From the NCBI GenBank assembly GCA_020853575.1, contig JADYYP010000021.1, positions 62,001 through 126,000 of the forward strand: a DNA stretch of 64,000 nt, given 5' to 3'. The translations under genes were made by a program, and so were the position numbers. The notes under the pieces were generated by a model. It worked only from the letters and a program-made list of their open reading frames with translations. It was not told where the DNA came from and made no database searches. Numbering within the stretch: position 1 is the first letter of the stretch; each line of letters starts with the position of its first letter. Shown in pieces: positions 25,308 to 50,706 of this stretch. The stretch comes from Planctomycetota bacterium. GTDB lineage: Bacteria > Planctomycetota > UBA1135 > GCA-002686595.

Positions 25308-26372
25308 ATGAGGGTCGGAAGTCGTTTCCAGCGTTCCCTGCTGGCCGTGTCGCTGCTCGGGTGGCTGATGTTCCAGCGCGGCGCGAGCGTGCGGGCCGGC
25401 GACTATCACGTCGGTGCGACGCTCGATTGCGCCGAGTGCCACAAGATGCACTTCAAGCCCGGGCTCGAGGGCCCGACGGGCAAACCCGAGGTCGGTCGCC
25501 TGCTCAAGCGCGACGTCAACGAGCTGTGCCTTTCGTGCCACGACGGCTCACAGCGCGCGGTCGATGTCCTCGGACGAAACCAGGGCCACGGCGCGAGCGC
25601 CGTGCGGCAGGCGGGCTTCCTCAATCACCTCGGGCGCTCGGGCAATCCCGCGACGGGCCACACGCTCGGTGCACTCGACATCGCACCGGGCTCGAATCCA
25701 CCCTGGCGCGCGGAGGACGAGAACGGCTCCGGCGTGGGCCTCAACTGCATCAACTGCCACGCGCCGCACGCCGAGCAGGCCGAGCGCGCCTACCGCAACC
25801 TGCGCGGCGACGCCGGCAACAACGCGCCCGGCGCGGGGCTGGTGACCTACAACCACGAGCGCATCGGAGTCAACGATCTGTCGCGCGACGTGTTCGTGCG
25901 CCGCTCGCTGGAGTACGACGAGGCCCAAGTCGACTTCAACGAGCCCGACCGCACCGACTCTGGGATGGCGCGCTTTTGCGCTGGGTGCCACAACGTGTTC
26001 CACGGCCAGCCGGGCTCGGACGCGAACATCGGCGGCGTTGCCCGCGGAAAGTCGTTCGCGCAGTTCGTTCGGCACCCGACGGCGGGCGTCGACATCGGCG
26101 GTGCCGGCGGAGGCGCGCGTTCAGGGCTGACGACCTTCGCGAGCAAGACCAACCGCGTCAAGGTGATGAGCGAGCTCGGGGTGTGGTCGACGCCCGGCGC
26201 CGACGTCACTCCGACCTGCATTTCGTGCCACAAGGCACACGGCAACGACAATCCCTTCGGGCTGATCTTCCGTTCGGGTCGCGGCACGCCGACGGAGAAC
26301 GGAGACACGGAAGGGCGCGCGGTCGAGGACCTGTGCCGTCAATGCCACGACGACTCCTGGATCACCTTCTGA
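25308..26372 (+). CDS. Exported hexaheme cytochrome c (copy B)
   Basis: The product has 354 residues and is a paralogue of the preceding gene. It shares GDYHVGATLDCAECHKMHF at the mature N-terminus, six haem sites in the same order (CAECH, CLSCH, CINCH, CAGCH, CISCH, CRQCH), the segment DLSRDVFVRRSLEYDEAQVD against DLTRDVFERQAAEYDEADVD, and ADVTPTCISCHKAHGN in both. The signal peptide is RSLLAVSLLGWLMFQRGASVRA. Its stop is only 12 bp from the end of the convergent beta-barrel gene, so the two cytochromes meet the large operon tail to tail. Confidence 0.92.
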   Translation: MRVGSRFQRSLLAVSLLGWLMFQRGASVRAGDYHVGATLDCAECHKMHFKPGLEGPTGKPEVGRLLKRDVNELCLSCHDGSQRAVDVLGRNQGHGASAVRQAGFLNHLGRSGNPATGHTLGALDIAPGSNPPWRAEDENGSGVGLNCINCHAPHAEQAERAYRNLRGDAGNNAPGAGLVTYNHERIGVNDLSRDVFVRRSLEYDEAQVDFNEPDRTDSGMARFCAGCHNVFHGQPGSDANIGGVARGKSFAQFVRHPTAGVDIGGAGGGARSGLTTFASKTNRVKVMSELGVWSTPGADVTPTCISCHKAHGNDNPFGLIFRSGRGTPTENGDTEGRAVEDLCRQCHDDSWITF

Positions 26373-26384
26373 GCCCGAACGCGC

Positions 26385-28553
26385 TCACGCGTTGAAGTGG
26401 AACGAGAGCAGCATGAGCTCGGTCGACGGCCCGGTGTCGGGCTGCTCCTGCGCGTACTGGAACTCCAAGTAGGTGTGCGAGTCGAGCGAGTAGCGCGCGC
26501 GGCCGCGGTAGCGATCGACTTGCGTGTCGCTGAACGACTCGGTGCGCGTGCGGTCGAAGTCGAGCTGCAAATCGATCGCGCCATCGGCGAACGGAATCCA
26601 GTCGAGGCGCAGGCGCTGGTCGAGGCCATCGCCCGCGGAGCCGTCGATCCACTCGAGCTCGTACTCGGCGATGAACTGCTCAGTCGGGCGGTAGAGCAGC
26701 GTTGATTCGTAGCGCTCTTCCGAAGGATCGGGGATACCCGCCGCGCCCAGGCCGGTGACCTCGGCGTCGTCGTTGCGCGCGCGCAGAGTCCACTCGACCT
26801 GTCGGGTCAGCTCGGCGACCAAGGCGGCGGAAGAGATCCAGCGCGAGATGTCGCGGGAGTTGGTGAAGTCCTCGAGCTGGTTGCGCTCGAACACGAGCTC
26901 TCCGCGCAACGTCGGGAGCAACTGTGCGGTCGTCAGGATCTGAGCGACGTGGGTCTGGACGTCGTCGTCACCGTCGACCGAGCGGCTCGTGTCGTTGTAG
27001 CTCAGGTCGATGTCGAGTGTCTCGAGCGGGCGATAGGTGAGCACGCCGATCAGGTTAACCAGTTGCTCGTCGTTCAGGATGTCGTCCTCGACGCGCTGAA
27101 CCGCGGCGCGCAGGTTGGCCGAGAACTCGCGCCGCGGAGTCCAAGCGCCCCACACGCCGTTGTCGAGGCGCGTCTCGTCGCGCGTGGTCGTCCCATCGGA
27201 GTCGGCGTCGGCACTCTGCGCCAATAGGTCGTAGCCCACCGAGAGCGTGTCCGACACGCGCCACGACAGGGTCGCGGTTCCGCTCTGCAGTTGCTCCTCG
27301 CTGCGCGAGCGCGTCGAGCTGCCCGAGCCGGCTGCGCGGAGGATCTCGAGCTCGGTCACCAGAACGGAGGGCGCTGCCGCGGGCGAAGCGGTGTTGACGA
27401 TCTTGAGGTAGCGCGCGGTGACGCGCGGAATCGTCAGGCGGAAATGCTGGTTGACCGTGTCGTACACGAACGCGGCGGAATTCTGCACCGGCGTCCAGAA
27501 GGTGTTGTCGGTCGAGCTCCACACCGAGAACGAGAACTGGTTGACGAAGTTGGCCGGAACCGGCGCCGCGGTCTTGAGCTGCACGAAGTCGACTGCACCG
27601 CCCGGTGGCAGCTCGACGGCCATGTTCCAGAACAACTGACCACCGGTGGCGAATCCGCCGATGTCGACGCCGCTCGGGGCCGCGGTGTTGAAGTCGATCA
27701 GCGCAGGATTCGCCGTCAGGTTCGAGATCTGCGGAGTCAGATCGACATCGCTGAAGCCCTGCACGGGCGTGACTTGCACGCTCGGGCTGCTGCCGGCGGG
27801 GACGTCGAGCAGTGTTTCGCGCTCGGTGACGAAGACGCTCAGCGTGGTCGACAAGCGATCGTCGAAGTGCCGCTCGTCGTAGGTGCCGCGCGCGCGCCGC
27901 TCGGTGCGCGTGCTCTCCACGTCGGTCCCCAAGTCGTCGGTGATTTCGTCGCGCGCACCGAACTCGTAACTGTACGGCTCGATCGTCTGGCTGACTTGGA
28001 GCTGCGACTCCAGGCGCGTCTGCTCGACCGAGTAGCGGTCCTCGACGGTCCTGTAGGCCAGCCACGCGGTGACCTGCGGGAGCTCGTCCGGCAACCAGTC
28101 GACCTTCTGCAGCACGTCCTTGCGAAGCAAGCGATTGTCCGCGCCGCTGTCGATGAGGCTGCGGTCCTCTTGCATGCGATAGGTCTGCGTCCACGTCAGC
28201 GGCCCCGACTCGAGCTCGACGTCCAGCGTCGGTCGGTGCAATGTGGTCTCGTCGCGCGTATCGCCAGCCGTGCCGCCAAACCACTGCGTCGACTGCGCAT
28301 AGGTGTCGTTGAGCCGATACTCGACGTCACTGCCGATGCGCTCCTGGACGCCGAGCTCGACCAGCGTGTTCTGGTTGGTGACGCGCGATCCGCCGCTGTC
28401 GCTGTGCTCGACGCCCGTGCGGAACGTGCGCAACGGTCCGCTGACGCAACTCGAGAGCACGAAGCCCGCGATCGAGCACGCGGCAACGGCGGCCGGCGAG
28501 GTCAACGCGCGCCGGCGAAGACGCGTGTGGTGCTCACTCTGCGAGGACCACAT
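26385..28553 (-). CDS. Putative outer-membrane beta-barrel with embedded discoidin-like domain
   Basis: The product has 722 residues. The N-terminal signal ends FVLSSCVSG, which could be a lipobox. The rest alternates short strands of 9-12 residues with Asp/Arg-rich turns (for example LSWRVSDTLSVGYDLLAQSA and LELDIDLSYNDT-like stretches) and ends with LMLLSFHFNA, fitting the C-terminal strand of a barrel. Size and strand pattern recall MtrB-type porins that hold cytochromes in the outer membrane; homology to MtrB itself is not shown. Residues about 300-420 (FSFSVWSSTDNTFWTPVQ, then TARYLKIVNTASP) look like an F5/8-type C (discoidin) domain. It is last in the operon and overlaps the preceding gene by 20 bp. 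Confidence 0.7.
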   Translation of the reverse strand: MWSSQSEHHTRLRRRALTSPAAVAACSIAGFVLSSCVSGPLRTFRTGVEHSDSGGSRVTNQNTLVELGVQERIGSDVEYRLNDTYAQSTQWFGGTAGDTRDETTLHRPTLDVELESGPLTWTQTYRMQEDRSLIDSGADNRLLRKDVLQKVDWLPDELPQVTAWLAYRTVEDRYSVEQTRLESQLQVSQTIEPYSYEFGARDEITDDLGTDVESTRTERRARGTYDERHFDDRLSTTLSVFVTERETLLDVPAGSSPSVQVTPVQGFSDVDLTPQISNLTANPALIDFNTAAPSGVDIGGFATGGQLFWNMAVELPPGGAVDFVQLKTAAPVPANFVNQFSFSVWSSTDNTFWTPVQNSAAFVYDTVNQHFRLTIPRVTARYLKIVNTASPAAAPSVLVTELEILRAAGSGSSTRSRSEEQLQSGTATLSWRVSDTLSVGYDLLAQSADADSDGTTTRDETRLDNGVWGAWTPRREFSANLRAAVQRVEDDILNDEQLVNLIGVLTYRPLETLDIDLSYNDTSRSVDGDDDVQTHVAQILTTAQLLPTLRGELVFERNQLEDFTNSRDISRWISSAALVAELTRQVEWTLRARNDDAEVTGLGAAGIPDPSEERYESTLLYRPTEQFIAEYELEWIDGSAGDGLDQRLRLDWIPFADGAIDLQLDFDRTRTESFSDTQVDRYRGRARYSLDSHTYLEFQYAQEQPDTGPSTELMLLSFHFNA

Positions 28554-30018
28554 CGCTGGGCCGCGAACCGCAGTGGATCGCGGGCTCCTCCTTGCTCAAG
28601 ACGACGTCGATCACGAGCACGGCTCCGCGCTCGGCCGATGCACCGTAGACGCGCGAACCCTCGCGGGACTGCGCCATCGACTCGATCCGGCCGGAAAGCG
28701 GAAAACGCCGCACGACGGCGCCGATGCGCGTGTCCACGACGACCATCTCGTTGGGCCGGGCGCGTGCGACGTAGACGCGCGCCGTTCGCCGGTCGGCGAG
28801 CACGTCGGTGACATCCGCGCCCACGAACACCGCGCGCTGCTGCGCCAAGCTCTGCGCGTCGTACACGAGCAGGTTGGGCGAGGTCGCATGGCCGACGAAC
28901 AGCTGGTGCTCGTCACGGTCGACATCGAGCGCGCTCGGACGTGATTCGGTGGCGATCGTCGCGACCACGCCTCGCGCGTTCACGTCGATGACACTGATGG
29001 TGTCATCGCCGAAATTGGCGGAATACACGCGACCCAGCCCGGGAGCGCTCGCCAGGCGCAGCGGATCGCGTCCGACGGACACTTGCACGCTCGAACCGCT
29101 GCCCAAGGCGATCAGCGACACCGAGTCGAGCTCGCGATTGGCAGCTGCGAGCCAGCGCTCTGGGTCGGCGAAGACCAGATCGCACGTCCCGGCGCCGAAA
29201 GCGATCGGGAGCGTGGTCTCGATCGTGCCTTGACGCGTGTCGATGGCGAGCACGGAGCCGTCGCCGGCGTTGGCCGCCCACAGCCTGCGCCGATCGCGCG
29301 CCAAGGCCAAGGCTCGCGGCTCGGAGCCGGTCTTGTAGGTGCCGACGACCTGACCCGAGGCGCGGTCGATGGCGAGCACCGAGCTGGTGGCGGCATCGGC
29401 GACGTACAGCAATCCGAGCGCGGTCTGCGGCGTCTCCAACGAGACGCTGAACTGGGGCGCGAAGCTCGCGCCGCCGACCAGCGACGGTCCAGCGCGCCAG
29501 TCGACGAACAGCGAGCTCGCTTGGCGTGCGTCGACGCGGAAGGACGCGGGGATTTCCAGCACCGTGAGCCCGCGCTCGTCGCGCTCGAGCTCCAACGGCA
29601 CCCGACCGTCGGCGCGCTCGAGCCATGCCGCGCCCAATGTCAACTCGAGCGCCGCATAGCCGGTGGGAGGAACGATGGCACCGGCGATGCGCGAGCGACT
29701 CGCGAGCTCCCTCGAGCTCACGTGTTGTCGTGCGAGCTCGAGTGTGCGCACCTGACCGAGCTCATCGCGGACCGCGGCGCCGGCGATGTCGAAGGAGATC
29801 GCGCGCGCCGCGGGGTCGACACAGCGCAGGAACACGTCGACGCGCGCGCTGGTCGCCTCGACCGCGGACGGGCGCTCGCGTTCCCGCTGACGCGCGCCAC
29901 AGGCCGCGAGCAGCGCGACGCCGACGCATGCGGCGGCGATCCGAGCTCGCCAAGGCTGCGTCGAGGAGTCGGGCTTCGCGCGCGAGTCGCGCACGTGCGA
30001 GCGATGGGGGCGCTTCAC
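28534..30018 (-). CDS. YVTN-type beta-propeller lipoprotein
   Basis: The product has 494 residues. The GTG start at 30018 overlaps the upstream stop (GTGA). A lipobox is present at ALLAACG. After an N-terminal beta domain (about 40-170), blades of a surface propeller follow from about residue 190: GLLYVADAATSSVLAIDRAS, RRLWAANAGDGSVLAIDTRQ, RVYSANFGDDTISVIDVNA, HQLFVGHATSPNLLVYDAQ and RVYVARARPNEMVVVDT. Such YncE/YVTN propellers are structural or binding proteins; some (cytochrome cd1-like) carry cofactors, but no haem motif is seen here. Location between cytochromes and the barrel suggests a structural part of the complex. Confidence 0.8.
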   Translation of the reverse strand: MKRPHRSHVRDSRAKPDSSTQPWRARIAAACVGVALLAACGARQRERERPSAVEATSARVDVFLRCVDPAARAISFDIAGAAVRDELGQVRTLELARQHVSSRELASRSRIAGAIVPPTGYAALELTLGAAWLERADGRVPLELERDERGLTVLEIPASFRVDARQASSLFVDWRAGPSLVGGASFAPQFSVSLETPQTALGLLYVADAATSSVLAIDRASGQVVGTYKTGSEPRALALARDRRRLWAANAGDGSVLAIDTRQGTIETTLPIAFGAGTCDLVFADPERWLAAANRELDSVSLIALGSGSSVQVSVGRDPLRLASAPGLGRVYSANFGDDTISVIDVNARGVVATIATESRPSALDVDRDEHQLFVGHATSPNLLVYDAQSLAQQRAVFVGADVTDVLADRRTARVYVARARPNEMVVVDTRIGAVVRRFPLSGRIESMAQSREGSRVYGASAERGAVLVIDVVLSKEEPAIHCGSRPSDVVLAE

Positions 30019-31016
30019 TGTTTGGGGCTCGCTGCGGGCTTGGGCTTGCGCTCGAACACTTGCACGCGTTGGCCGAAGCGCTCGGCGATGAACACCGGGC
30101 CGTCGGGCGCGATCTGGATGTCGGTCGGATACAGCAGCTCGCCCGGAGCGCGCCCGCGGGTTTCCGGGGCGAACCAGCCCCCGAAGTGCAGCAGGAATTT
30201 GCCGGCGGGCGTGAAGACCTTGACGTCGTGGCGCAGCATGTCGACGGCGAACAGGTAGTCGTGCTCGTCGAAGGCCACGGCCGCCGGCGAGGTGAAGTCC
30301 GAGAGACCGATGTCTCGACCGCCGAAGGCGCTGACGAGCAAGTTCTCGGAGGTGAACACGTGGATCGCGGGATTGCCGCGCTGGTCCGCGATGGCCACCA
30401 GTCCGCTGGGGGACACGGCGATGTCGACCGGCGAGTCGTAGGCGCCCTTTTCCTGCGGCGCGGGAATTTCGCGCAGGAATTGGCGCTCCTTGGAGTACAC
30501 GAAGGCGCGGGCGAGCTCGCGATCGATCACATACCAACGGCCCTCGCTGTCGCGCGTGAACGCGCCGACGACCACGGAGCTCGCGGGCTCGCCCTGCTTC
30601 TCCTGCGGGCGCGCGAAGGGCAGCACGGCCTTCAACTCGCCGCGGTAGCTGAACTCACGGATGTCGGCGCGACTGGAGTCGAGCACGAAGATCGTGCCTT
30701 CACGGTCGGCGAACACCGCCTTGGGCTCGATCAGCGTCGCGGCACTGCCGAACGCGAACACCGGTGTGTATTCGGCGTCGAAGATGCCCACCAGTCCGTT
30801 CTTCGAGTCGGCGACGAACAACTCGCGCGAGGCGGGCTCGAAGAACACGCCCACGGGCTCGCGGAAGTTGCCCTCCGAGAGGTGCCCCCAGAGCGCGTCC
30901 TGCGGTTCGACGAGGAACGGATAGCTCGGGGGCGCCGCCACGGGTTTGCCAGCGCCGCCCTGGCCTTGCAGGGCGAGCGTGGCCAACGCGACCCAGTGGC
31001 TAGCGCTGACCACCAC
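30015..31016 (-). CDS. Exported NHL-repeat beta-propeller protein
   Basis: The product has 333 residues with a short hydrophobic N-terminus (WVALATLALQGQGGAG) serving as a signal. Repeats of about 45 residues show the NHL pattern: FREPVGVFFEPASRELFVAD, YDSPVDIAVSPSGLVAIADQ, FTSPAAVAFDEHDYLFAVD and LYPTDIQIAPDGPVFIAER, each followed by a hydrophobic strand with V-x-V-F. It should form a six-bladed propeller. NHL proteins co-occur with multihaem cytochromes in several environmental bacteria, possibly as assembly or docking scaffolds. It overlaps both neighbours, by 17 bp upstream and 4 bp downstream. Confidence 0.85.
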   Translation of the reverse strand: MVVSASHWVALATLALQGQGGAGKPVAAPPSYPFLVEPQDALWGHLSEGNFREPVGVFFEPASRELFVADSKNGLVGIFDAEYTPVFAFGSAATLIEPKAVFADREGTIFVLDSSRADIREFSYRGELKAVLPFARPQEKQGEPASSVVVGAFTRDSEGRWYVIDRELARAFVYSKERQFLREIPAPQEKGAYDSPVDIAVSPSGLVAIADQRGNPAIHVFTSENLLVSAFGGRDIGLSDFTSPAAVAFDEHDYLFAVDMLRHDVKVFTPAGKFLLHFGGWFAPETRGRAPGELLYPTDIQIAPDGPVFIAERFGQRVQVFERKPKPAASPKQ

Positions 31017-32292
31017 GGCTCGAGTCCTTCTTGGTTTCGTGATCGGTGCTGTGGCACTCGATGCACAGGCCGCGCGTTTGATCTCCGCGCAGCTGATACG
31101 CGAACGGCGTCCCGTGGGGATCGTGGCAAGTCACGCAGGTGATCGGCTTGCCCGTGCGCGGGTCGAGCCGGTCGTCTCCCAACGGGTGGCCGTGCTTGGC
31201 CGTCTCGTGGCACTGGATGCAGGTGCGGATCTCGCCGGCCATCAACAAGTGCGGCTCGGTCGAGCTGTGCGGGCTGTGGCAACCCAGGCACGAGCCCTTC
31301 TCGTCCTTGACCGGGTGCGCCGACTTCGATTCAGCGGCGCGCTTGAGCAAGTCTTGGTGGCAGCTCGTGCAGAGCTGGCCCGGAGAGCTGGCCAGGAGTC
31401 CCTTGCGGTCCGAGGCATGGGGCACGTGGCACGATGCGCACAGCCCGTCGGTCACCGGCTTGTGCACGAGCGTGTCGCCGGACTTCGGAACGTCCTTGTG
31501 ACACGTCTGGCACAGCCGCGCGCCCGTCGCGCGCACGACGCGTGGCGTCTCGCTCTCGGTCACGTGGCACATCTCGCAGCTGCCTTCGGCGAACGGGCTG
31601 TGGCCCACGGGCCGCAGCAGTCCCTTGATCTGCGTCGCGTGGGGCTCGTGGCAGCCCAGGCAGTTCGAGCCCTTGATCGGAATGCCGGTGTGCGCATCGA
31701 CCAGCTCCTGCGACTCGACCTGGTGGCACACCGCGCACATGTTGTTGGCGGGTGCGTTGAGCTGCGCCGGGTAGGGCGAGTTGTGCGCCTTGTGGCAATC
31801 GGCGCATTCGCCGCTGCCGAACGGCTCGTGCACGATCGGCAGCTTCGCCTGCTCGGCCTTCTGCGTGTGACAGGTGAAGCACAGGTCGTTGCCCGGCTTG
31901 ACCAGTAACGACTCGTTCGTCGATCCGTGCACTTCGTGGCACGCCGAGCACTGGCCCTGCATCACGGGCGTGTGCACGTTGCCCTTCGTGAACTCGACGA
32001 TCTTGTCTTGGTGGCACGTGGCGCACAGACCGCGTTCGCGCGCGTTGAGCAACTTGGGGAAGCGCGCCGCGTGCGGCGAATGGCACTTGGAGCACTCGCC
32101 GTCGAGCACTGGCTTGTGCGGCACGGGCTGCTGCACGACCTCGCGCATCTTCTCGTGACAGCGCAGGCAATCGACCTTGGTCGTCGCTCCGGCGCCGTGC
32201 ACACCGTCCTGCGGTTGCTCCGCGCGCGCCGAGCCGAGCCCGAGCGCGAGCAGGGCCGCACCCACGAAGAGGAACTCACTTCTTCGCGCCAT
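31000..32292 (-). CDS. Exported 16-heme cytochrome c of doubled-CXXCH type
   Basis: The product has 430 residues with a signal peptide (FLFVGAALLALGLGSARA). I count 16 CXXCH sites, from CLRCH near residue 42 to CIECH near the end, about one per 25 residues. Many are in the doubled-CXXCH pattern, with a pair of haem sites and an intervening H-x-P-V or SPH element (for example CSKCHSPHAARFPKLLNA and CASCHVPHASDRKGLL) whose second histidine is a likely distal ligand. The protein should fold as a haem wire. It overlaps the 26-heme gene by 17 bp, which implies tight co-expression. Confidence 0.93.
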   Translation of the reverse strand: MARRSEFLFVGAALLALGLGSARAEQPQDGVHGAGATTKVDCLRCHEKMREVVQQPVPHKPVLDGECSKCHSPHAARFPKLLNARERGLCATCHQDKIVEFTKGNVHTPVMQGQCSACHEVHGSTNESLLVKPGNDLCFTCHTQKAEQAKLPIVHEPFGSGECADCHKAHNSPYPAQLNAPANNMCAVCHQVESQELVDAHTGIPIKGSNCLGCHEPHATQIKGLLRPVGHSPFAEGSCEMCHVTESETPRVVRATGARLCQTCHKDVPKSGDTLVHKPVTDGLCASCHVPHASDRKGLLASSPGQLCTSCHQDLLKRAAESKSAHPVKDEKGSCLGCHSPHSSTEPHLLMAGEIRTCIQCHETAKHGHPLGDDRLDPRTGKPITCVTCHDPHGTPFAYQLRGDQTRGLCIECHSTDHETKKDSSRGGQR

Positions 32293-34387
32293 GGCACTCC
32301 TCGCACTTCTGTTCGGAGAACGGGACGTGTCGGTTGGGCCAGAACAGTCCGGCTCCAGGCGCCGCGTGCGGCGAGTGACAACTGGTGCAATCGGTCTGCG
32401 GCGTCACTTGTCCCAAGTGCGCCGCGCTGAACTTCGGCTCGTTGAGGTCGTGGCAACCCTTGCACAGCTCCTGGCCGCCGACTTTGGCGAGGCCGGGGTG
32501 CTTCGACGCGTGGGGCAGGTGGCAACCCAAGCACTCGCCGTCGCGCGCGGGCGGGTGTGACGAGTAGCCAGGCTGCGTGGTTTCCGCGAGCACGTCGGCG
32601 TGGCACGCGCGACATGTTTCCTTGACCGACTGAGTCAACAGGCTCTTGTTCACCGAGCTATGCGGCGAGTGGCACGCCGAGCAAGCACCGGCCGCGGCCG
32701 GCGCGTGCTTGAATTCGGCCGACTCGATCGCCTGCTGCGTGATGCCGTGGCAGCTCGCGCACAGGTCCTGCTCTTCCTTCTTGAGCAGCCCCTTCTGCGG
32801 CGCCGAGTGCGGATCGTGGCACGTCAGGCATTCGCCCTTCTTGACCGGCGCGTGGAAGCTGCCACCGGCGCGCTCCTCGAGCACCTTGGCGTGGCACGAG
32901 GTGCACAGCGAGGTGGCTTCCGCGTGCAACAGGCCCTTGGTGTCCGAGGCGTGCGGGTTGTGGCAGTCGAGGCAGCGTCCCAGCGCGACCGGCTGGTGCA
33001 GCGACTCGGACTTCATGCGCTCCGCGTGCTCCTTGTGGCACTTGAGGCACAGGTCGACGGCCGACGTCTTGAGCAGGCCCGGCGTGGGCGAGGAGTGACC
33101 GACGTGACACGTCGAGCACATCTCGAGCGGCGCGTGCACGACCGCGCGACCGAGCTCGGCTTCCATGCCCGTGTGGCACGTCATGCACAGCTCGTCGCCC
33201 GGAGCTTTCAGGAGGCGCTTGTCCTCTCCTCCGTGCGCGTCGTGGCACTCGAGGCACTTGCCGTCGGTCACGGGCAAGTGCGCGGTGTGCGCCTTGGCGG
33301 ACAGGCCCTTGAGCTTGGTATCGACGTCGTGGCATTGCTTGCACGACTCCGAGGGCTCCGCGTTCAAGAGCTTGGCGTGATCGGAGGCGTGCGGCGCGTG
33401 GCAGCTGGTGCACTTGCCGTCCTTGACCGGCGCGTGCGGCCCCGTGCGCGCCGCGAAGTCCTGGATCTTCTCCGCGTGACACACCTTGCAGAGCTTCTCC
33501 TCGGGCATCATCAGCGCCGGCTTCTGGCCGGGAGTCGCCGACTCCGCGTCGACATGGCACATGGTGCAGTCGCCGTCGCCGACGGGTGAGTGCACGTTGC
33601 CCTTGACCAGTCCCTTCGCCTTCGAGACGTGCGGCGAGTGGCACGAGCCGCAGTTGGCCGAGGCCACGTCGTACTCGCCGTGCGCGCTCTTGAACTTCGC
33701 CTGCGTGGCGTCGTGGCACTTCGAGCACAGCGCGGGAATCGGCTGGCTCAGCCCTTCCTTGGTCGCATTGTTGTGCGCGTCGTGGCAGCCCAGGCAACCC
33801 TCGCCGACCGGCTTGTGGATGTTCTCGCCCTCGTAGTGCGAGCGTTCGTGGCACTTGAAGCACAGCGCTTGGCCCGCCTCGACCAGCAACTTGGGCTCGC
33901 GCGACGCGTGCGAGTCGTGGCACGAGCTGCACTTGACGTCGCTCGTCGCCGCGTGCACGTGGTCGCCCTTGACGAACGGCTCCGCGTCCTTGTGGCACGT
34001 CAGGCACAGCTCGGGCTCGGGCTTCTTGAGCCTGTTGACGCCCACCAAGCCATGGCGGTCGTGGCAGTCCTCGCAGCGTTCGCCGAGCGCGTCGAAGTGC
34101 GCCGTCTTACCCTGCAAGGTCGCGACGAAGTCGCTGTGGCACTCGACGCAGGTGCGCCCGCCCTTGGCGGCGCGCGGCGGCGTACTCTTCAGCGGAGCCG
34201 TGGGCTGGGTTGCCGACGGATCCGTCTTCGGCTCGGCGACGTTGGGCGCCGCAACCGGCGTGGTGCGCGCCGGTCGCGCGCGCGGCTTCGACGCTTCACA
34301 GGCCGCACCGATCGCGACCGTCAAGGCGACGGCACCGAGCAGCGCAGCTGCCGCGCGGCGCGCGCGGGATGTTCGTTGCTCGCGCAT
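32276..34387 (-). CDS. Exported 26-heme cytochrome c of doubled-CXXCH type
   Basis: The product has 703 residues with 26 CXXCH sites by my count, from CVECH near residue 78 to CEECH four residues before the C-terminus. The N-terminal hydrophobic segment (ALLGAVALTVAIGAACEAS) is a signal with a weak lipobox, so it may be lipid-anchored. A Pro/Ala/Thr linker (about 35-70) precedes the haem array. The array is a tandem repeat of about 50 residues: H-x-P-V-x-x-G-x-C-x-x-CH-x-P/A-H-A-S followed by GLL and a second CXXCH. It should form a long multihaem wire, the core of the putative electron conduit. Its start shares one base with the isomerase stop (TGATG). Confidence 0.94.
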   Translation of the reverse strand: MREQRTSRARRAAAALLGAVALTVAIGAACEASKPRARPARTTPVAAPNVAEPKTDPSATQPTAPLKSTPPRAAKGGRTCVECHSDFVATLQGKTAHFDALGERCEDCHDRHGLVGVNRLKKPEPELCLTCHKDAEPFVKGDHVHAATSDVKCSSCHDSHASREPKLLVEAGQALCFKCHERSHYEGENIHKPVGEGCLGCHDAHNNATKEGLSQPIPALCSKCHDATQAKFKSAHGEYDVASANCGSCHSPHVSKAKGLVKGNVHSPVGDGDCTMCHVDAESATPGQKPALMMPEEKLCKVCHAEKIQDFAARTGPHAPVKDGKCTSCHAPHASDHAKLLNAEPSESCKQCHDVDTKLKGLSAKAHTAHLPVTDGKCLECHDAHGGEDKRLLKAPGDELCMTCHTGMEAELGRAVVHAPLEMCSTCHVGHSSPTPGLLKTSAVDLCLKCHKEHAERMKSESLHQPVALGRCLDCHNPHASDTKGLLHAEATSLCTSCHAKVLEERAGGSFHAPVKKGECLTCHDPHSAPQKGLLKKEEQDLCASCHGITQQAIESAEFKHAPAAAGACSACHSPHSSVNKSLLTQSVKETCRACHADVLAETTQPGYSSHPPARDGECLGCHLPHASKHPGLAKVGGQELCKGCHDLNEPKFSAAHLGQVTPQTDCTSCHSPHAAPGAGLFWPNRHVPFSEQKCEECHGAKK

Positions 34388-36198: not shown

Positions 36199-36200
36199 CG

Positions 36201-37298
36201 CTAACCTCCGAGACCGGCGACGATCTCTCGCGCCGTTTGCCGCGCGAGCCCGAGTGGGTCGCGGATGACTCCCAAACCGAGCAGCGACTGGTAGTGATCG
36301 CCGCGGCGGCGCACTCCGGCGGCCGCCATGATTCGCCCGCTCTCGACGTCGATGATCCGCACCGTCGCCTCGACTTCGGGGAAGTGATCGTTGTCGACCG
36401 TGCTCTCCTCGCCGAAGCGCTCGATGCTGCCGAGGGCGAAGTAGCGCGTCCCGAGCTCGCGCCCGAGCTGGGCCAACCCGCGATTGTCGACGAAGCGCAT
36501 CGAGCGAACGCGCAGGCGTTGCAGTGCGGAGCGCACCTCCGCGGGCTCGACCACCTGCACGCCGCTCGAGCGGAACCAGGCGTCACCCAGGAACTCGCTC
36601 CAGGCGACCGTGGCGTCGGGAGCCGACGAGCGGTTGTCGAAGGGCAGGATGGCCACGCGCTCCACCGCCGCAGGCTCAAAATCCTCGAGCATGTAGCCCC
36701 AGCCGGAGTCCGGCGGGTCGCTGCGCTCGCGCTCGCCGGGGCGTGCCGTCTGCTCCAGCGGACGCGCGTTCTCGTCGAACGGTGCGAGCAGCGCGTCCAG
36801 CGCTTCTCCGAGCAACTCGTCGCTTTCGTCGATCTTGCCCAAGCCGAGCAGGCCTTCGAAGTCGGCACCGCGCAACGCGACCGAGGACGAAGCCACGCGC
36901 TCTCCCGAGGAGCCGCGCAGCGCGCGAAGGGTCAGTGCCACGCGCGGCTGCGGCCCGTCGTCGAAGTCGATCACCGTCCCCGCCAGGATGAACTCGACGT
37001 GCAGCGCTTCGGCGAGCGCGCGAGCGTCGCGCACCGACAGCGAGTCGGTGTAGCGCACGCGGCGTTCGAGCAGGCGCGCCTCGAGGTCCTCGGGGTCGAC
37101 GAAGCGCGCACCGCGGGCCGCGAACTCGGCCTCGATCAGCGCACCGATGCGGCTGGCCGCCTCGGGATCGTCGCTCAGGTTGCGAAGTGGCATCATGGCG
37201 TAGTTGACGCCGTTCGAGTGCGAGGTTGGCGCGCCTCCGGCCGCACCCGTTCCAGCCAGCGCGAGGAACAGGGGGCCGAGCATGCGGGGCGTCGCCAT
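36201..37298 (-). CDS. Exported protein with two TolB-N/CsgG-like domains
   Basis: The product has 365 residues. ATG 37298 gives a short signal (MLGPLFLALAGTGAAGG). Two related halves follow. The first starts NYAMMPLRNLSDDPEAASRIG, the second VERVAILPFDNRSSAPDATVA; both are the opening strand of the N-terminal domain of TolB/CsgG-like outer-membrane-complex proteins. Each half continues with a helix-strand pattern ending in a membrane-transport-like FILAGTVIDF or YFALGSIERF strand. The role in such clusters is unknown; envelope assembly is the reasonable guess. It lies 2 bp before the isomerase start and 5 bp after the CsgG-like lipoprotein. Confidence 0.7.
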   Translation of the reverse strand: MATPRMLGPLFLALAGTGAAGGAPTSHSNGVNYAMMPLRNLSDDPEAASRIGALIEAEFAARGARFVDPEDLEARLLERRVRYTDSLSVRDARALAEALHVEFILAGTVIDFDDGPQPRVALTLRALRGSSGERVASSSVALRGADFEGLLGLGKIDESDELLGEALDALLAPFDENARPLEQTARPGERERSDPPDSGWGYMLEDFEPAAVERVAILPFDNRSSAPDATVAWSEFLGDAWFRSSGVQVVEPAEVRSALQRLRVRSMRFVDNRGLAQLGRELGTRYFALGSIERFGEESTVDNDHFPEVEATVRIIDVESGRIMAAAGVRRRGDHYQSLLGLGVIRDPLGLARQTAREIVAGLGG

Positions 37299-37303
37299 GG
37301 TGC

Positions 37304-37894
37304 CTACTCGAAGGTGCTCAAGACCTCGCGCACCAAGCGCAACACGGCGTCGGTCTGGCTCTCTTCGCCGATGCCGAACAGGCGCGTGGTCCACTTCGCG
37401 CCGCTGCGCGCGCCGGTGACGGCCCACACCGTGATGCCGGACTCCGCGTCGAGCATGCGCAGCGAGAGCGCCACCTCGGGCAGGGCCAGCGAACCGGAGC
37501 GCCGCTCCTGGTACTCGACCACGCTGCCCAGCATCAAACCCTGGACGCCCAACTCACGCCCCAGCGCGGAAGTCTGTGCCGCGCCGAGCTCGCTCGTGTT
37601 GCCCACGTTCTGCGTGCGCAGCACGCGATTGACCTCGCCCAGGTCGACCACCTCGAAGAGCGCCTGCGAGCTGAGCTCGACGTTCAGGATCTCGCGCACG
37701 CGCTCGGCCGCGAAGCGCTCCGAGGTCAGGTTCTCGAGCGGCAACACGGCCACGCGCGGATACGTCGCGAGGTCGAGGTTGGGGTGCATGTACAGCGCAC
37801 CCTGCTGCTCCGCGGCGCAGCTCGCGCAAAACGCGAGCAGTGCGCAAACGAGGGACGCGGCGAGCGAACGCAAGACGTGGGGAGCGGTCGACAT
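37304..37894 (-). CDS. CsgG-like lipoprotein
   Basis: The product has 196 residues with a probable lipobox (FCASC). The core begins YPRVAVLPLENLTSERFAAE and contains VVDLGEVNRVLRTQNVGNTS, ALGRELGVQGLMLGSVVEY and SLRMLDAESGITVWAVTGA, the conserved strand-helix order of CsgG/DUF799 (GNA1162)-type lipoproteins. Curli CsgG itself is an outer-membrane export channel; this protein is shorter than CsgG and has no obvious barrel insertion loops. It lies 27 bp downstream of ccsA and 5 bp upstream of the TolB/CsgG-like gene. Confidence 0.75.
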   Translation of the reverse strand: MSTAPHVLRSLAASLVCALLAFCASCAAEQQGALYMHPNLDLATYPRVAVLPLENLTSERFAAERVREILNVELSSQALFEVVDLGEVNRVLRTQNVGNTSELGAAQTSALGRELGVQGLMLGSVVEYQERRSGSLALPEVALSLRMLDAESGITVWAVTGARSGAKWTTRLFGIGEESQTDAVLRLVREVLSTFE

Positions 37895-37921
37895 GGGGCT
37901 TTTCTCGCAGTGTGTTGCGGA

Positions 37922-39931
37922 CTACTCCGCGCGACCCTGCGTGGTGGGAATGGCCGGGCCGCCGCCGCGCGTCGCGAGCGCCTGCTTGACGGCGTCCTCG
38001 CGCGTGCGTTGCACGAGGTAGTGCACGACGCATACCGCGACCAGGCCCCACTGCACTCCGTAGTAGCTCCACAGCGCGGTGTGGATGCCGCTGGTGAAGC
38101 CGTAGCTGTGCAGGCCGACGCCCAGCAGATTGACGCCGAACCACGAGAAGGCGATCACCGTGCCCTGGAAGGCCGTCGCCGCCGCCAACCCGAATTCACG
38201 CAGGTAGCCACCCATGCGCGCGTGCATGATCACGAGCTGCGCCAGGCAGATCATCAGGGCGCCATTCTCCTTGGGATCCCAGCCCCAGAAGCGGCCCCAG
38301 CTCTCGTTGGCCCAGATGCCGCCCAGGATCGTCCCGACGACCGAGAAGATCAGCGCGAAGGCCAGCGAGCCGTAGGTCATGCGCGAGAGCAACTTGGCGA
38401 AGGTCGGGTCGTTCTTCTTGATGCCGAAGAGCCGCGTGACCAAGTACACGTTCGCGATGGCCGCCGCGACCAAGCCGGCGGCGTAGCCGGCGGTGATCGC
38501 GGTGACGTGCGTCGCCAGCCAGAAGTTGGTGTCGAGCACGGCGATCAACTGCGGCATCGTGTCGCGCTTGTCGAGCGTCTCGTAGCCGTTGGCGAGCAGC
38601 AGCAGCACCATGCCGAGCACCGCCGCGACGGACAGCGCCATGCGCTGCTTGTTGATCCACTCGATCACCAGCAGTGTCACGGCGCCGACGCCGGCGACGA
38701 ACAGCAGCGTTTCGTAGAGCGTGCTCACCGGCGGGCGCTCGCGGATCATGCAGCGCACGACGATCGCGCCCACCACCAGGGCCGTCGCGCCGACCACCGA
38801 CAAGGTCGCGCCCCAGTACAGCGCCTTGACGCGCGGCAGGAGCCACATGCCGGCCGCGAACAGGAAGCCGATCAGGAACAGCACCAGCGAATTGGTGATG
38901 AACTGCGCCTTGTAGTAGGAGATCTCGAGCGGGATCTTCTCGTACTCGCCGCGCGCCATGGTCTTGGCCACGCTCTGGTTGTGGACCGTCGCCAGCGCCA
39001 TCTCGAACTGCAGCGGATCGCCGCTGGAGAGCGCCAGCTTCTCGAACGCCGCCAGCATGTCGATGTAGGGCGTCGGCGTGCTCTGCTTCTCGAACGCCGC
39101 CATGAACAGGTCCGCCGGCGAGTGCCAGGCTTCCTCTTCCTTGACCGAGGTGATCGGCGGGATCAGCGCCAGGGTTTCGGTGCCGCTGGTGTACTCCGAG
39201 GCGGTCTGCACGAGTTGCACCAAGCGCTTGGAGTCCTCGCCGCGCGCGGGATCGTTGCGCCAGGCGCCTTGCAGCTCGACCAACTCGGGCAGCTTCGTCA
39301 TCAGCTCGCTGAACGACACGCTGTCCTTGCCGAAGACCGTGACCAGCGCGGGTACGTCCGCGATGCTCTGGGGCTCGCGCGCGAAGTCGAAGTGCGTGCG
39401 CAGGCGGATGTAGTCGTCGATGCTGGTGGCCAGCGTGAACACCTGCTGCTCGACGGTGGAACGGTCGCGCTCCTCCTTTTGGCCGTACTCGCGCGCGCGC
39501 TCGAACAAGGTCGAGATCGCCGGACGGATCTCGTTGAAGGTGTAGCGGTCGCGCTTCTTCTTGCCCTCGAGCTTGAGCCCGATGGCCTCGATGGCCTGGA
39601 TGTCGTCCACCTTGAACACCGGGTACTCGGCGGCTTGCTCGGGGTAGAACAGCACGTCGAGCAGCCAGCTCGTCGCATCCAGCTTGGTGCCGTCGACGGT
39701 CTTGCAGCTCGACTTGCCGTTGAAGCGCAAGAGCGTGAAGCTGGCGTAGGTCGAGAGCGGCTTGACGCGCCCACCGTCTTGCACGGGCAGGCTCTCGGCC
39801 AGTTCGAGCGTGTGCGCCGAATACGGTGCCGAGCGGCTCGGCAGCTGCGTGTGGCTGTGCTGAGCGCGAGCGCCGGCGACGAGCGACAGCGTGGCGAGGA
39901 TCGACGCGAAGAGCTTGATGATGGTGTTCAT
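37922..39931 (-). CDS. ccsA: Cytochrome c biogenesis protein CcsA/ResC
   Basis: The product has 669 residues. The N-terminal half (about 25-320) starts with a signal-like helix and is a large soluble domain found in long CcsA forms of several phyla. The C-terminal half has about eight membrane helices with the haem-handling WWD motif in GGIWANESWGRFWGWDPKEN and conserved histidines in DTNFWLATHVTAITAGY and GVNLLGVGLHSYGF. With ResB it exports haem and ligates it to CXXCH sites outside the membrane (system II). Its start overlaps the resB stop (ATGA). Location inside the cytochrome operon suggests a dedicated maturation system. Confidence 0.93.
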   Translation of the reverse strand: MNTIIKLFASILATLSLVAGARAQHSHTQLPSRSAPYSAHTLELAESLPVQDGGRVKPLSTYASFTLLRFNGKSSCKTVDGTKLDATSWLLDVLFYPEQAAEYPVFKVDDIQAIEAIGLKLEGKKKRDRYTFNEIRPAISTLFERAREYGQKEERDRSTVEQQVFTLATSIDDYIRLRTHFDFAREPQSIADVPALVTVFGKDSVSFSELMTKLPELVELQGAWRNDPARGEDSKRLVQLVQTASEYTSGTETLALIPPITSVKEEEAWHSPADLFMAAFEKQSTPTPYIDMLAAFEKLALSSGDPLQFEMALATVHNQSVAKTMARGEYEKIPLEISYYKAQFITNSLVLFLIGFLFAAGMWLLPRVKALYWGATLSVVGATALVVGAIVVRCMIRERPPVSTLYETLLFVAGVGAVTLLVIEWINKQRMALSVAAVLGMVLLLLANGYETLDKRDTMPQLIAVLDTNFWLATHVTAITAGYAAGLVAAAIANVYLVTRLFGIKKNDPTFAKLLSRMTYGSLAFALIFSVVGTILGGIWANESWGRFWGWDPKENGALMICLAQLVIMHARMGGYLREFGLAAATAFQGTVIAFSWFGVNLLGVGLHSYGFTSGIHTALWSYYGVQWGLVAVCVVHYLVQRTREDAVKQALATRGGGPAIPTTQGRAE

Positions 39932-41091
39932 GACGCGTTCGATTGCTGCGACTTGATGTGCTTGGCGAGCTTGCGCGTGAAGTGCATCACGAGCCCGACG
40001 GCGATCACGATGCAGGCGTACAAGGGGTACTGGTCGGCCGGGTTGTCGACGACGGCGAGCGTCGAGAACAGTGGGTCGCCGGGGCGCGCGTTCGACGGCC
40101 CCCACGAGGCTTGGTAGAGCACCAGGCCGTCCTGGCGCAGCGGCTCGTTCATCGAGATCTTGACCGGGCGCTTGGTCGGGCCTTCGACCACCGTGACGTC
40201 GCTCGAGAAGGACTTCGGCATGTTCATGCGCGGGTGGTCCTCCTTCTTGAAGTCGTCGAGCGCGACGGTGAAGGGCATCAGGAACTGCTCGCGGCGCAGC
40301 TCGATGCCGTACTGCTTGCCCGCGACCGTCACCGTCCAGGGCTGACGCGAAGCGCCCCACAGGATCGCCTCCTGGCGCGCGCCGCCGCTGCGCTCCACGA
40401 CCGTCGCGTAGGCGCCGGCGATGTTCTGCTCGTTCTGCTTCTCGAGCTCGATCGCGTCCAGGAAGTAGCCGTCGACCACCGGCAGCTTGGGCGTGATCAT
40501 CGGGCCCTTGGGCAACACGCGCGCGTTGGGGGAGAAGTGCGCGATCTCCAGCTCGAAGGGCAGGTCGTTCGACTTGAGCTTGACCGGCGTCGCGCCCAGC
40601 GAGAGCTCGAAGTCACCCTGCGGTGCGATGGTCTCGCGCAGCCGGCCGTCGTCGAGTTGCTCGAGGATCGCGATCTCCCAGTGGTGGTAGCTCTCGAAGG
40701 TGTTCGACGCTTGGCCCTCGAACAACGTGACGTGCCCGTCGGCCGAGTGGTTCATCTTCACGTAGCCCGCGAAGATCAGGAAGATGATCCCGATGTGCGT
40801 GATCAGCACGCCCAGCGTGGCCTTGCTCTTGCGCATGCGCACCAAGCCGCCGAGCACGATGTTGACGGCGAGCACCGCGAGCACCAGCGTCGCGCCGGGC
40901 ATGGGGATCGCGATCGGACCGGCGTGGTGGATGAAGAACCAGGACTCGAAGTACTTCTTCTGCACCTCGAACAGCCCCGTGTTGACCTGCTCCAGCGTGC
41001 CCAGCCAGGTCAGGATGCCGAGATCGAACAGCAGGATGCAGCTCAACCACAGCGAAGACAGCGCGTCGTAGCACCACTTCAACAGCTTCAT
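39928..41091 (-). CDS. resB: Cytochrome c biogenesis protein ResB-like
   Basis: The product has 387 residues. Three N-terminal membrane helices (LSSLWLSCILLFDLGILTWLG, ATLVLAVLAVNIVLGGLV, LGVLITHIGIIFLIFAGYV) precede a large periplasmic domain, and a fourth helix (YPLYACIVIAVGLVMHF) closes the protein. NEPLRQDGLVLYQASWGPSN matches the conserved ResB segment before the last helix. ResB forms the system II synthetase with CcsA. It lies 4 bp after the upstream lipoprotein gene and overlaps ccsA by 4 bp. Confidence 0.9.
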   Translation of the reverse strand: MKLLKWCYDALSSLWLSCILLFDLGILTWLGTLEQVNTGLFEVQKKYFESWFFIHHAGPIAIPMPGATLVLAVLAVNIVLGGLVRMRKSKATLGVLITHIGIIFLIFAGYVKMNHSADGHVTLFEGQASNTFESYHHWEIAILEQLDDGRLRETIAPQGDFELSLGATPVKLKSNDLPFELEIAHFSPNARVLPKGPMITPKLPVVDGYFLDAIELEKQNEQNIAGAYATVVERSGGARQEAILWGASRQPWTVTVAGKQYGIELRREQFLMPFTVALDDFKKEDHPRMNMPKSFSSDVTVVEGPTKRPVKISMNEPLRQDGLVLYQASWGPSNARPGDPLFSTLAVVDNPADQYPLYACIVIAVGLVMHFTRKLAKHIKSQQSNAS

Positions 41092-41095
41092 CGAT

Positions 41096-42433
41096 TCACC
41101 TCGCGGCCTTCAGGGACTTGCAGAACTCGACGAAGGCCGCGTGCTGCGCTTCGACGGCGTCTCGCGGACCGGTCATCTTCACGAACAAGGCGCGCTCGGA
41201 GAGCATGCTGACCGCGCCCAGCAGCAGGTCTTGGCCCGCCGCGGCGGTGGCGTCCGCGCCGCGCTCGAGCTTGACGATCACGCCCGCCGCTCCGGCCATC
41301 GGCACTTGCTCGAGCTTGGCCATGTCGGCGTCGGTCAACTGCGCCGCACCCATTTGCGTGCACCAGCGGTTGATGTTGGCCAGCGTGCCGCCGCCGCTTC
41401 CGCCGAGCAGCGTCACGTAGCATTCGACCTGTCCCGCGGCGTCGGCGAGATAGGTCACCTCGCGCATGGTCTTCTCGGGGCCGCGCTTCCAGCCCTGCGG
41501 AGCGCGCCACTCCAGCGACGCGTTGCGCATGGTGTCGACAGCGGGAGCGTCAGCGATGGTCTCGCTCTTCATCTGGCCCGCGCCGCCCTTGGCGGTCGAG
41601 CCCATCGGCGGATGGCCGGCGGGCAACCCCTGCGTCGCTTGGTCCGGCGACAGAGGCGGCGCGGTCTGCGCCGGCGCGCCATCGCCGTGGGCGTGTCCCG
41701 CGCCATCGTGGAACGAGGCCGCGAGCGCGCGGAAGGCCGCGACCTCACGACCGATGACCTCGCTCGGTCCGACCATCTTCAAGAAGCGCGAGCCCGTGGG
41801 TTGCACCAGCAGCAGGCCGACCAATCGCCAGCCCTGCTCGGACTGGTCGCCCGACATGCCGGTCCAGTGTCCCTCGAAGTCGACGTAGGCTGCCTGACCT
41901 CCGAGCCACGGCAGTTTCGGAAGCGCGGCGACCTCAGCCTCGCCCAACGGCGGCAGCGAGACCTGCGTGCGCCAGCGGTTGACGTTGGCCGCGAGTCCGC
42001 CCGCTTCACCCGCCAGCGTGGTCAGGTAGCACTCGGCGCGTTCGTCGCCGGCGACGAAGAAGTTGGCCTCGCGGAACTGTGCCGACGGGCGCTCGACCCA
42101 GCCGCTCGGCAACTCCCAGTGCAGCGCGTTCTCGCCGACGTCGTCGCCGCCCATCGCGCCGCCCATCGCGCCACCCTTCGAGGCGCCGGCGAAGTCCGAG
42201 GACGAGATCCCGAAGCGCTCGGCCGAGGGAGCGTTCCAGCGGATCTTGCGTCCGACGGCCGTGTACTCCTTGGCGGCGGCGAGCTGGCGCTCGCTCGGCG
42301 CTTCACGCTGGCAGGCGATCGAACTCGCGCCGGCGGCCAGAATCAGAGCGGCGCAGCACTGCGCGCGCACTCGATTCCAGGAGTGGTGAAGAGGTCGCGG
42401 TGACCCGACGAGTAGCCCGTGCCGAGTATCCAT
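41096..42433 (-). CDS. Exported lipoprotein-like protein with two copies of an unknown domain
   Basis: The product has 445 residues. ATG 42433 is chosen; a longer frame (to 42586) adds basic sequence without a signal. A hydrophobic segment ends SSIACQRE, a possible lipobox. Two collinear domains follow: LHWELPSGWVERPSAQFREA ... ECYLTTLAGEAGGLAANVNRW at about 95-235, and LEWRAPQGWKRGPEKTMREV ... ECYVTLLGGSGGGTLANINRW at about 310-440. Between them is a Gly/Pro/Ala linker. No known family recognised. It is first in the operon, directly before resB, so a role in cytochrome maturation or haem handling is possible; no CXXCH or metal motif is seen. Confidence 0.75.
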   Translation of the reverse strand: MDTRHGLLVGSPRPLHHSWNRVRAQCCAALILAAGASSIACQREAPSERQLAAAKEYTAVGRKIRWNAPSAERFGISSSDFAGASKGGAMGGAMGGDDVGENALHWELPSGWVERPSAQFREANFFVAGDERAECYLTTLAGEAGGLAANVNRWRTQVSLPPLGEAEVAALPKLPWLGGQAAYVDFEGHWTGMSGDQSEQGWRLVGLLLVQPTGSRFLKMVGPSEVIGREVAAFRALAASFHDGAGHAHGDGAPAQTAPPLSPDQATQGLPAGHPPMGSTAKGGAGQMKSETIADAPAVDTMRNASLEWRAPQGWKRGPEKTMREVTYLADAAGQVECYVTLLGGSGGGTLANINRWCTQMGAAQLTDADMAKLEQVPMAGAAGVIVKLERGADATAAAGQDLLLGAVSMLSERALFVKMTGPRDAVEAQHAAFVEFCKSLKAAR

Positions 42434-50621: not shown

Positions 50622-50706
50622 TGGTGCGGAAGAGGGGACTCGAACCCCTACGCCTTGCGGCACAAGATCCTAAGTCTTGCGCGTCTGCCAATTTCGCCAC
50701 TTCCGC
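50622..50706 (-). tRNA. tRNA-Leu, anticodon UAG
   Basis: This is 85 nt with the 3' CCA encoded. The acceptor stem pairs GCGGAAG with CTTCCGC. The D arm contains GGC...TTGGCAGA, the anticodon stem CAAGA/TCTTG encloses loop CTTAGGA (anticodon UAG, reading CUA and related Leu codons), a long variable arm is formed by TGCCGCAAGGCG and the T arm is GGGGTTCGAGTCCCC. The discriminator base is A, as for leucine tRNAs. It lies alone between the SGNH hydrolase and DUF1579 genes. Confidence 0.96.

What the first reader, a model, noticed from the sequence alone, without database searches (positions are those of the whole stretch)
26385..42433. An 11-gene operon that looks like a self-contained multihaem electron conduit with its own maturation system
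From 42433 down to 26385 every gene is on the minus strand, with spacings of 27 bp or less and overlaps of 1, 4, 4, 17, 17 and 20 bp. It combines two giant cytochromes (26 and 16 CXXCH), a putative beta-barrel, two propeller proteins, a double parvulin isomerase, CsgG/TolB-like lipoproteins and ResB/CcsA haem ligation. Known porin-cytochrome clusters (Geobacter PCC, Shewanella Mtr) share barrel, cytochrome and sometimes isomerase, but dedicated ResB/CcsA plus propellers and CsgG-like proteins in one operon is a distinct composition. I infer a surface electron-transfer or metal-respiration module.
Basis: partly seen in the sequence, partly recalled or inferred. Interest (0 to 1): 0.93.

Follow-up and report, generated by a model that had tools for sequence, protein, structure and literature searches.

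The report
Planctomycete version of Geobacter nanowire cluster
A planctomycete genome carries a relative of the Geobacter gene block linked to the nanowire protein OmcS, with two genes beside it whose proteins resemble OmcS, so this bacterium would likely pass electrons to targets outside its cell.

Summary
In detail: eleven tightly packed minus-strand genes (26385-42433) with 26- and 16-haem cytochromes. Eight of the eleven genes are the known eight-gene block of the osc/oet (omcS-companion) cluster, CsgG-like lipoproteins and propellers included. HMMs built only from planctomycete proteins find the whole set in 9 of 9 Geobacterales and Anaeromyxobacter loci (chosen for a 16-haem hit). They are OmcS relatives: OmcS is the only significant PDB hit of their profile (E 1.1e-13) and the only Foldseek match of the template-free model. 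ResB/CcsA is not dedicated: one copy in this genome, CcsA in 66 of 81 family genomes, and the unit stands alone in same-genus genomes without the cluster's propeller. So an electron-export block sits behind the lineage's ordinary haem-attachment genes. Two by-products matter. The 'CsgG-like' proteins are PelC-like (E ~1e-12), suggesting a Pel-type outer-membrane portal. Five loci from other bacteria carry a 42-haem gene that looks like a fusion of the 26- and 16-haem cytochromes, suggesting that the pair shares a compartment. Nanowire formation, export route and acceptor are untested.

The parts
41096..42433 (-). 445-aa predicted lipoprotein, first gene of the lipoprotein-ResB-CcsA unit; no Pfam family
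   Evidence: same unit in genomes without the propeller
39928..41091 (-). ResB-like cytochrome c maturation protein (only copy detected in the genome)
   Evidence: PF05140
37922..39931 (-). CcsA-like haem ligation protein (only copy detected in the genome)
   Evidence: PF01578; 66 of 81 family genomes
37304..37894 (-). PelC-like outer-membrane lipoprotein, single domain (LpoB/CsgG Pfam hits); position of OscF by gene order (inferred)
   Evidence: Cys23 and Trp157 in 25 of 25 aligned
36201..37298 (-). PelC-like protein with two repeated domains (FlgO Pfam hit just under cut-off); position of OscG by gene order (inferred)
34387..36198 (-). Predicted periplasmic chaperone with two parvulin-type prolyl isomerase domains; OscH-like
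   Evidence: PF00639 two stretches
32276..34387 (-). 26-haem cytochrome (OscI position)
   Evidence: 26 CXXCH; DmsE family 281.6 bits; GSU2495 (oscI) has 26 haems, PMC12977616 passage
31000..32292 (-). 16-haem cytochrome (OscJ position)
   Evidence: 16 CXXCH; profile's best PDB hit is chain A of the Mtr complex 6r2q, E 1.9e-22
30015..31016 (-). NHL-repeat propeller protein
   Evidence: PF01436
28534..30018 (-). YncE-type propeller, predicted lipoprotein (OscD position)
   Evidence: PF21783
26385..28553 (-). 722-aa predicted outer-membrane barrel with an F5/8 C-like insert (about residues 259-406); OetI/OscE position
   Evidence: homologues in 9 of 9 loci
24010..25098 (+). Hexahaem cytochrome 1, OmcS-like nanowire subunit candidate
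25308..26372 (+). Hexahaem cytochrome 2, OmcS-like paralogue (53% identical to hexahaem 1)

Best explanation
The eleven genes are an eight-gene relative of the Geobacter osc/oet (OmcS-companion) block behind a three-gene haem-attachment unit, and with the two OmcS-like hexahaem genes facing them they are predicted to make, export and electrically feed cytochrome nanowires. Proposed order of events, all inferred from homology: the hexahaem proteins and the 26- and 16-haem cytochromes cross the inner membrane by Sec and receive haem from ResB/CcsA, the only such pair detected in the genome. The double parvulin (OscH-like) helps the hexahaem subunits fold in the periplasm. Two PelC-like proteins form a ring or funnel under the large barrel and guide the subunits out. 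Outside, the hexahaem proteins polymerise as OmcS does, a histidine of one subunit ligating a haem of the next. The 26- and 16-haem cytochromes form a long periplasmic haem chain that delivers electrons to the barrel and filament. The propellers act on filament shape or attachment. Shown here: homology, gene order, haem counts, conserved histidines, single detected ResB/CcsA. Inferred: localisation, polymerisation, export path, direction of electron flow.
Against: Neither hexahaem protein finds OmcS by single-sequence search; the link needs a profile. The Foldseek match has TM about 0.3 and E above 0.001, and residues 20-68 of the model are mostly low confidence. The barrel model is middling (pLDDT 71.6, pTM 0.51) and Foldseek's top rows are TonB receptors at TM about 0.25. 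The hexahaem genes face the operon on the other strand. The propeller is missing from 4 of 7 same-genus genomes. L018 shows no barrel or YncE gene in its 20 kb, and L023, fetched for a weak propeller hit, holds no such cluster. The inner-membrane electron donor is unknown: NapC-type hits elsewhere are one 208-aa frame and one inside a 17-haem frame. Whether OmcS filaments serve electron transfer at all is disputed (PMC11077965, start of abstract; PMC13194489, passage).
Confidence: 0.75

Rival explanations
1. Fixed porin-cytochrome conduit (Mtr/Pcc-like): the barrel sheathes the 16- or 26-haem cytochrome and passes electrons across the outer membrane; the hexahaem proteins are ordinary surface or periplasmic cytochromes and no filament forms.
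Against: It leaves the isomerase, two PelC-like proteins and hexahaem genes unexplained, and those travel with the cluster across phyla. It is not exclusive: conduit and filament may work together.
Confidence: 0.3
2. Secretion without wires: the eight-gene block exports and matures hexahaem cytochromes that act as single surface proteins, the older function from which Geobacter nanowires arose.
For: PMC12977616 raises this for the GSU2501-type hexahaem gene, which always accompanies the block, while omcS does not (passages).
Against: Template-free fold and histidine pattern match OmcS, but these do not prove polymerisation.
Confidence: 0.3
3. Self-contained module with its own dedicated haem maturation.
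For: CcsA lies directly before the PelC-like gene on the same strand in 7 of the 9 family genomes with a strong propeller hit, this one included.
Against: ResB and CcsA are single copy in the genome; CcsA is in 66 of 81 family genomes; the unit exists alone in four same-genus genomes without a strong propeller hit; in G088 it is convergent with the block.
Confidence: 0.05
4. Inward electron flow: the module takes electrons from minerals or partner cells, as proposed for ANME-partner sulfate reducers.
For: The same cluster is proposed to accept electrons in syntrophic sulfate reducers (PMC5539420, PMC10553843, passages).
Against: Sequence cannot tell direction; no sulfate-reduction or carbon-fixation genes were looked for here.
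Confidence: 0.25

Closest known systems
osc (omcS-companion) cluster of Geobacter sulfurreducens, eight-gene block GSU2500-GSU2493 plus hexahaem genes
   Same: Hexahaem OmcS-like genes, YncE/YVTN propeller, barrel, two LpoB/FlgO-type proteins, double prolyl isomerase, 26- and 16-haem cytochromes, NHL propeller; HMMs match in 7 Geobacterales loci; eight genes in both.
   Different: In the window the YncE propeller and barrel genes come after the NHL gene, the hexahaem genes are on the facing strand, and a lipoprotein-ResB-CcsA unit precedes the block. The G. sulfurreducens locus itself was not fetched; letter-by-letter matching of OscD-OscJ is inferred from order.
oet operon (OetABI) of ANME-partner sulfate reducers and Desulfuromonadales
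   Same: Core of propeller, 16-haem, 26-haem and isomerase, plus porin and OmcS/OmcX-like cytochromes (passages); Desulfobacterales and Desulfobulbaceae-type loci L043, L044, L078 match.
   Different: Separate branch: planctomycete 26+16-haem sequences split from the rest with bootstrap 100. OetB is called an extracellular lipoprotein there; which cytochrome that is was not stated in the passages.
OmcS nanowire (PDB 6ef8, 6nef)
   Same: Six haems, matching motif order, N-terminal CxxCHxMH, six invariant extra histidines.
   Different: About 24% identity over the structural alignment; filament formation not shown.
PelC, lipoprotein of Pel polysaccharide export (PDB 9h80, 12 chains)
   Same: Profiles of both CsgG-like proteins hit it at E 2.8e-11 and 1.7e-12, with a shared Trp; the single-domain protein has an invariant lipid-type Cys.
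   Different: Linked to cytochromes, not polysaccharide genes; second protein has two domains; PelB was not compared with the barrel by name.
MtrCAB / Pcc porin-cytochrome conduits
   Same: Large barrel plus DmsE/MtrA-type multihaem cytochromes. Pcc-type genes have been reported in other Planctomycetota MAGs (PMC13264449, PMC10732223, passages).
   Different: More haems, and added isomerase, propellers and PelC-like proteins.

Membership tests
osc/oet cluster | Adjacent propeller, 16-haem, 26-haem and prolyl isomerase genes (PMC5539420) | tested here: met
   six blades as such not counted
osc/oet cluster | Homologous outer-membrane barrel in the cluster | tested here: met
   barrel HMM hits in 9 of 9 loci, 50-179 bits, in 13 of 18 further cluster loci and 0 of 52 others
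osc/oet cluster | OmcS-like hexahaem gene in or beside the cluster | tested here: met
osc/oet cluster | Collinear run LpoB-type, FlgO-type, isomerase, 26-haem, 16-haem, NHL | tested here: met
   note that YncE, barrel and hexahaem genes are placed differently in the window, and order also varies among other loci
osc/oet cluster | Needed for OmcS nanowire formation | not testable with these tools
   needs genetics
OmcS filament cytochromes | Specific sequence and fold similarity to OmcS | tested here: met
   profile and model only, not single sequence
OmcS filament cytochromes | Six c-haems, each with a second histidine available | tested here: met
   six CXXCH and six invariant extra His in 59 of 59
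OmcS filament cytochromes | Inter-subunit haem ligation and polymerisation (PMC9473688) | not testable with these tools
   passage; candidate residue His40 of hexahaem 1 rests on the alignment and on a recalled OmcS residue
PelC-like ring lipoproteins | Sequence similarity and lipidation Cys | tested here: met
   for the single-domain protein; the window copy of the two-domain protein has no such Cys
PelC-like ring lipoproteins | Ring oligomer under a barrel | not testable with these tools
   no complex prediction offered
Mtr/Pcc conduit | MtrB-type barrel | tested here: inconclusive
Dedicated ResB/CcsA maturation | A pair additional to the housekeeping system | tested here: not met

The most novel reading that the evidence does not exclude
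Cytochrome nanowires leave the cell through a portal of the Pel-polysaccharide type: PelC-like lipoprotein rings seated under a giant MtrB-like barrel. In the same machine the 26- and 16-haem cytochromes are two halves of one periplasm-spanning 42-haem wire, an arrangement that some bacteria have made permanent by fusing the genes. A lineage of Planctomycetota runs this machine, joined to its only haem-attachment genes.
Probability: 0.3. Interest if true: 0.8.

Novelty: new member of a known kind. Interest (0 to 1): 0.5.

Why it matters
It places an OmcS-type export block in Planctomycetota. My ten paper searches (listings, plus passages of ten papers) showed no report of this cluster there, though Pcc-type genes and iron-reduction potential in Planctomycetota MAGs are in print (PMC13264449, PMC10732223, passages), and the primary osc paper (Shen et al. 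2025, titled 'widespread and ancient', reference seen) is not held, so it may already list the phylum. The case separates a patchily distributed electron block from ordinary haem maturation, which corrects a tempting 'self-contained' reading. The PelC similarity gives a concrete, testable idea for how nanowire subunits cross the outer membrane, and the 42-haem genes suggest that the two giant cytochromes share a compartment.

Tried and rejected
Single-sequence PDB searches with the hexahaem proteins found nothing relevant; profiles were needed. A genome-contig scan with one hexahaem protein confirmed no relative; a second, with the 16-haem alignment, kept the best 80 of 174 loci. 'Dedicated maturation' was rejected. 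'CsgG-like' was refined to PelC-like: CsgG is a weak Pfam hit for the window protein (21.4 bits, cut-off 20.8) while PelC-type chains lead in the PDB. A clean empty site was sought in same-genus genomes: upstream neighbours agree, but the downstream match (a gene cut by the window edge at about 6-428, 46% over 141 aa, other orientation) is too weak to call an insertion. Selenocysteine for the in-frame stop at 23266-23268 was dropped: the codon is TAG. An Rfam scan of 20000-46000 gave nothing and the tRNA scan of the window only a tRNA-Leu at 50622. The PelC paper and the osc paper are not held; that PelC is a dodecameric funnel under PelB, and that 5t10, 5t11 and 5t0z are PelC structures, is recalled; the calls show 12 chains in 5t11 and 9h80 and the name PelC for 9h80 only. 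Not in the tree: L021 (26-haem gene cut) was dropped and L019 (contig starts inside the 16-haem gene) was not entered.
Full report
What is there. The window is part of contig C21 of a 6.17-Mb genome (92.5% complete). Named homologues come from Planctomycetes or Planctomycetota MAGs, two of them on contigs of the same length as same-genus genomes here. Eleven minus-strand genes run from 42433 to 26385 with gaps of 27 bp or less and overlaps of 1, 4, 4, 17, 17 and 20 bp. Pfam and NCBIfam give ResB, CcsA, LpoB/CsgG-like, FlgO-like, two parvulin stretches, doubled-CXXCH cytochromes with 26 and 16 motifs, NHL and YncE propellers, and for the 722-aa protein only a sub-threshold F5/8 C hit. Facing them on the + strand are two hexahaem genes, 24010-25098 and 25308-26372.

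It is the osc/oet cluster. PMC5539420 (passages) describes a core of six-bladed propeller, 16-haem and 26-haem cytochromes and prolyl isomerase. PMC10553843 (passages) names the porin conduit OetABI with OmcS/OmcX-like companions. PMC13194489 (passages) reports the proposed roles of the osc genes and labels GSU2495 oscI and GSU2494 oscJ, both periplasmic. PMC12977616 (passages) gives GSU2495 26 haems and describes the eight-gene block GSU2500-GSU2493, linked to nanowire maturation and secretion. I built HMMs from the window and its planctomycete relatives and scanned the 70 loci L037-L106 (recounted). Eighteen hold a 26- or 41/42-motif gene scoring over 400 bits. Of these 18, 16 have an LpoB-type hit, 16 FlgO-type, 17 NHL, 13 isomerase, 13 barrel, 5 YncE, and 14 a hexahaem hit of 40 bits or more. 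Of the other 52, none has an LpoB, FlgO or barrel hit; two have isomerase, 31 NHL and nine YncE hits, so the last two are not specific. In 9 loci picked for a 16-haem hit from genomes of the order of Geomonas diazotrophica (Geobacterales; 7 of the 19 of 58 genomes with a hit) and from Anaeromyxobacter oryzae (2), every family is present in 9 of 9, and neither ResB nor CcsA in any. The usual order there is hexahaem, YncE, barrel, LpoB-type, FlgO-type, isomerase, 26-haem, 15/16-haem, NHL. One hexahaem protein there (L111) matches OmcS at 8.9e-129. So the composition is the known one; that OscE, F and G are barrel, single-domain and two-domain PelC-like protein is my inference from order.

ResB/CcsA. 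One ResB and one CcsA are detected in the genome. CcsA is found in 66 of 81 family genomes, including 7 of 7 of the same genus, while the cluster's NHL propeller is found at E 1e-80 or better in 3 of those 7 and 9 of 151 genomes of the order. Absence of the cluster in the other four rests on that propeller search and on the fetched CcsA surroundings. There, and in G101 and G103, the lipoprotein-ResB-CcsA unit carries no cluster gene (6 of 6 fetched; in L119 the contig ends 233 bp after CcsA). In 7 of the 9 genomes with the strong propeller hit CcsA sits directly before the PelC-like gene; in G088 it is convergent with the block; in G134 the contig starts too late to tell. The eleven-gene run is thus two joined blocks, three and eight genes.

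The PelC lead. Profiles of the two lipoprotein families (25 and 22 sequences) have PelC-type chains as best PDB hits: 5t11 at 1.8e-12 and 3.2e-13, 9h80 (named PelC) at 2.8e-11 and 1.7e-12; GNA1162 and LpoB chains follow. By Pfam, LpoB is the commonest hit (21 of 25; CsgG 15 of 25) in the first family and 5 of 22 in the second. The Cys at 23 and Trp157 are invariant in 25 of 25, and the Trp aligns with a Trp in the PelC-type chains shown. With a large barrel next door this suggests a PelB/PelC-like portal for the reported OscE-G secretion role; inferred.

The giant cytochromes. Both match the DmsE family above its cut-off; the 16-haem profile's best PDB hit is chain A of the Mtr complex. In L038, L045, L047, L052 and L054 one gene carries 42 CXXCH. 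The 26-haem protein aligns best with its first part in 5 of 5; the 16-haem protein aligns best with its last part in 3 of 5 (in L054 two places tie, in L052 the last part is second). Signal-like N-termini precede the first haem, judged by eye. This supports a shared compartment, as do the periplasmic labels for oscI and oscJ. Against too strong a reading: four of the five loci have no barrel or isomerase hit, and in L047 those hits are weak (39 and 20 bits). A paper search for 42-haem cytochromes listed none.

History. A tree of joined 26- and 16-haem sequences (30 taxa) separates the planctomycete clusters from the rest with bootstrap 100 and puts the window with its genus at 98. Presence is patchy: 6 of 392 genomes across the phylum have a 16-haem profile hit above 250 bits. 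This fits old residence with repeated loss; gain is not excluded.

Verdict. A new member, in Planctomycetota, of a known kind of system.

Noticed in passing
window 22294-23652 (+): Pentahaem cytochrome gene with weak ExtKL similarity is interrupted by an in-frame TAG at 23266-23268; the relative in L016 (5229-6725) reads through. Real pseudogene or assembly error not decided.
   Followed up: partly
L038:2-3505; L045:8672-11839; L047:7856-11149; L052:8645-11827; L054:8639-11791: Single genes with 42 haem motifs that look like 26-haem plus 16-haem fusions. L048 has a 41-motif copy cut by its contig end.
   Followed up: partly
window 42916-45125 (-): Two-subunit 2-oxoacid:acceptor oxidoreductase genes just upstream; the beta gene is also upstream in L013.
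   Followed up: no
L024:10253-11491 (G000 C16): Third OmcS-like hexahaem gene elsewhere in the genome, with no other cluster gene found in the 20 kb fetched.
   Followed up: partly
L026 (G000 C10:9001-29000): Second cytochrome-rich region with frames of 21, 17, 9, 5, 4 and 4 haem motifs.
   Followed up: no
window 26385-28553 (-): The barrel protein starts with a lipobox-like LSSC (Cys36) and carries an F5/8 C-like domain between strands, possibly a surface binding domain.
   Followed up: no
L108, L109 (Anaeromyxobacter oryzae): Two copies of the cluster, each with every family, about 30 kb apart in one named strain.
   Followed up: no
L058:3902 (+): 1896-residue open frame with 41 haem motifs in an Actinomycetota MAG, beside other multihaem genes and only weakly like the 26-haem family.
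   Followed up: no
G303:C148:11976-20377: Another planctomycete family with five 16-haem-profile matches in one place, probably a further cluster.
   Followed up: no
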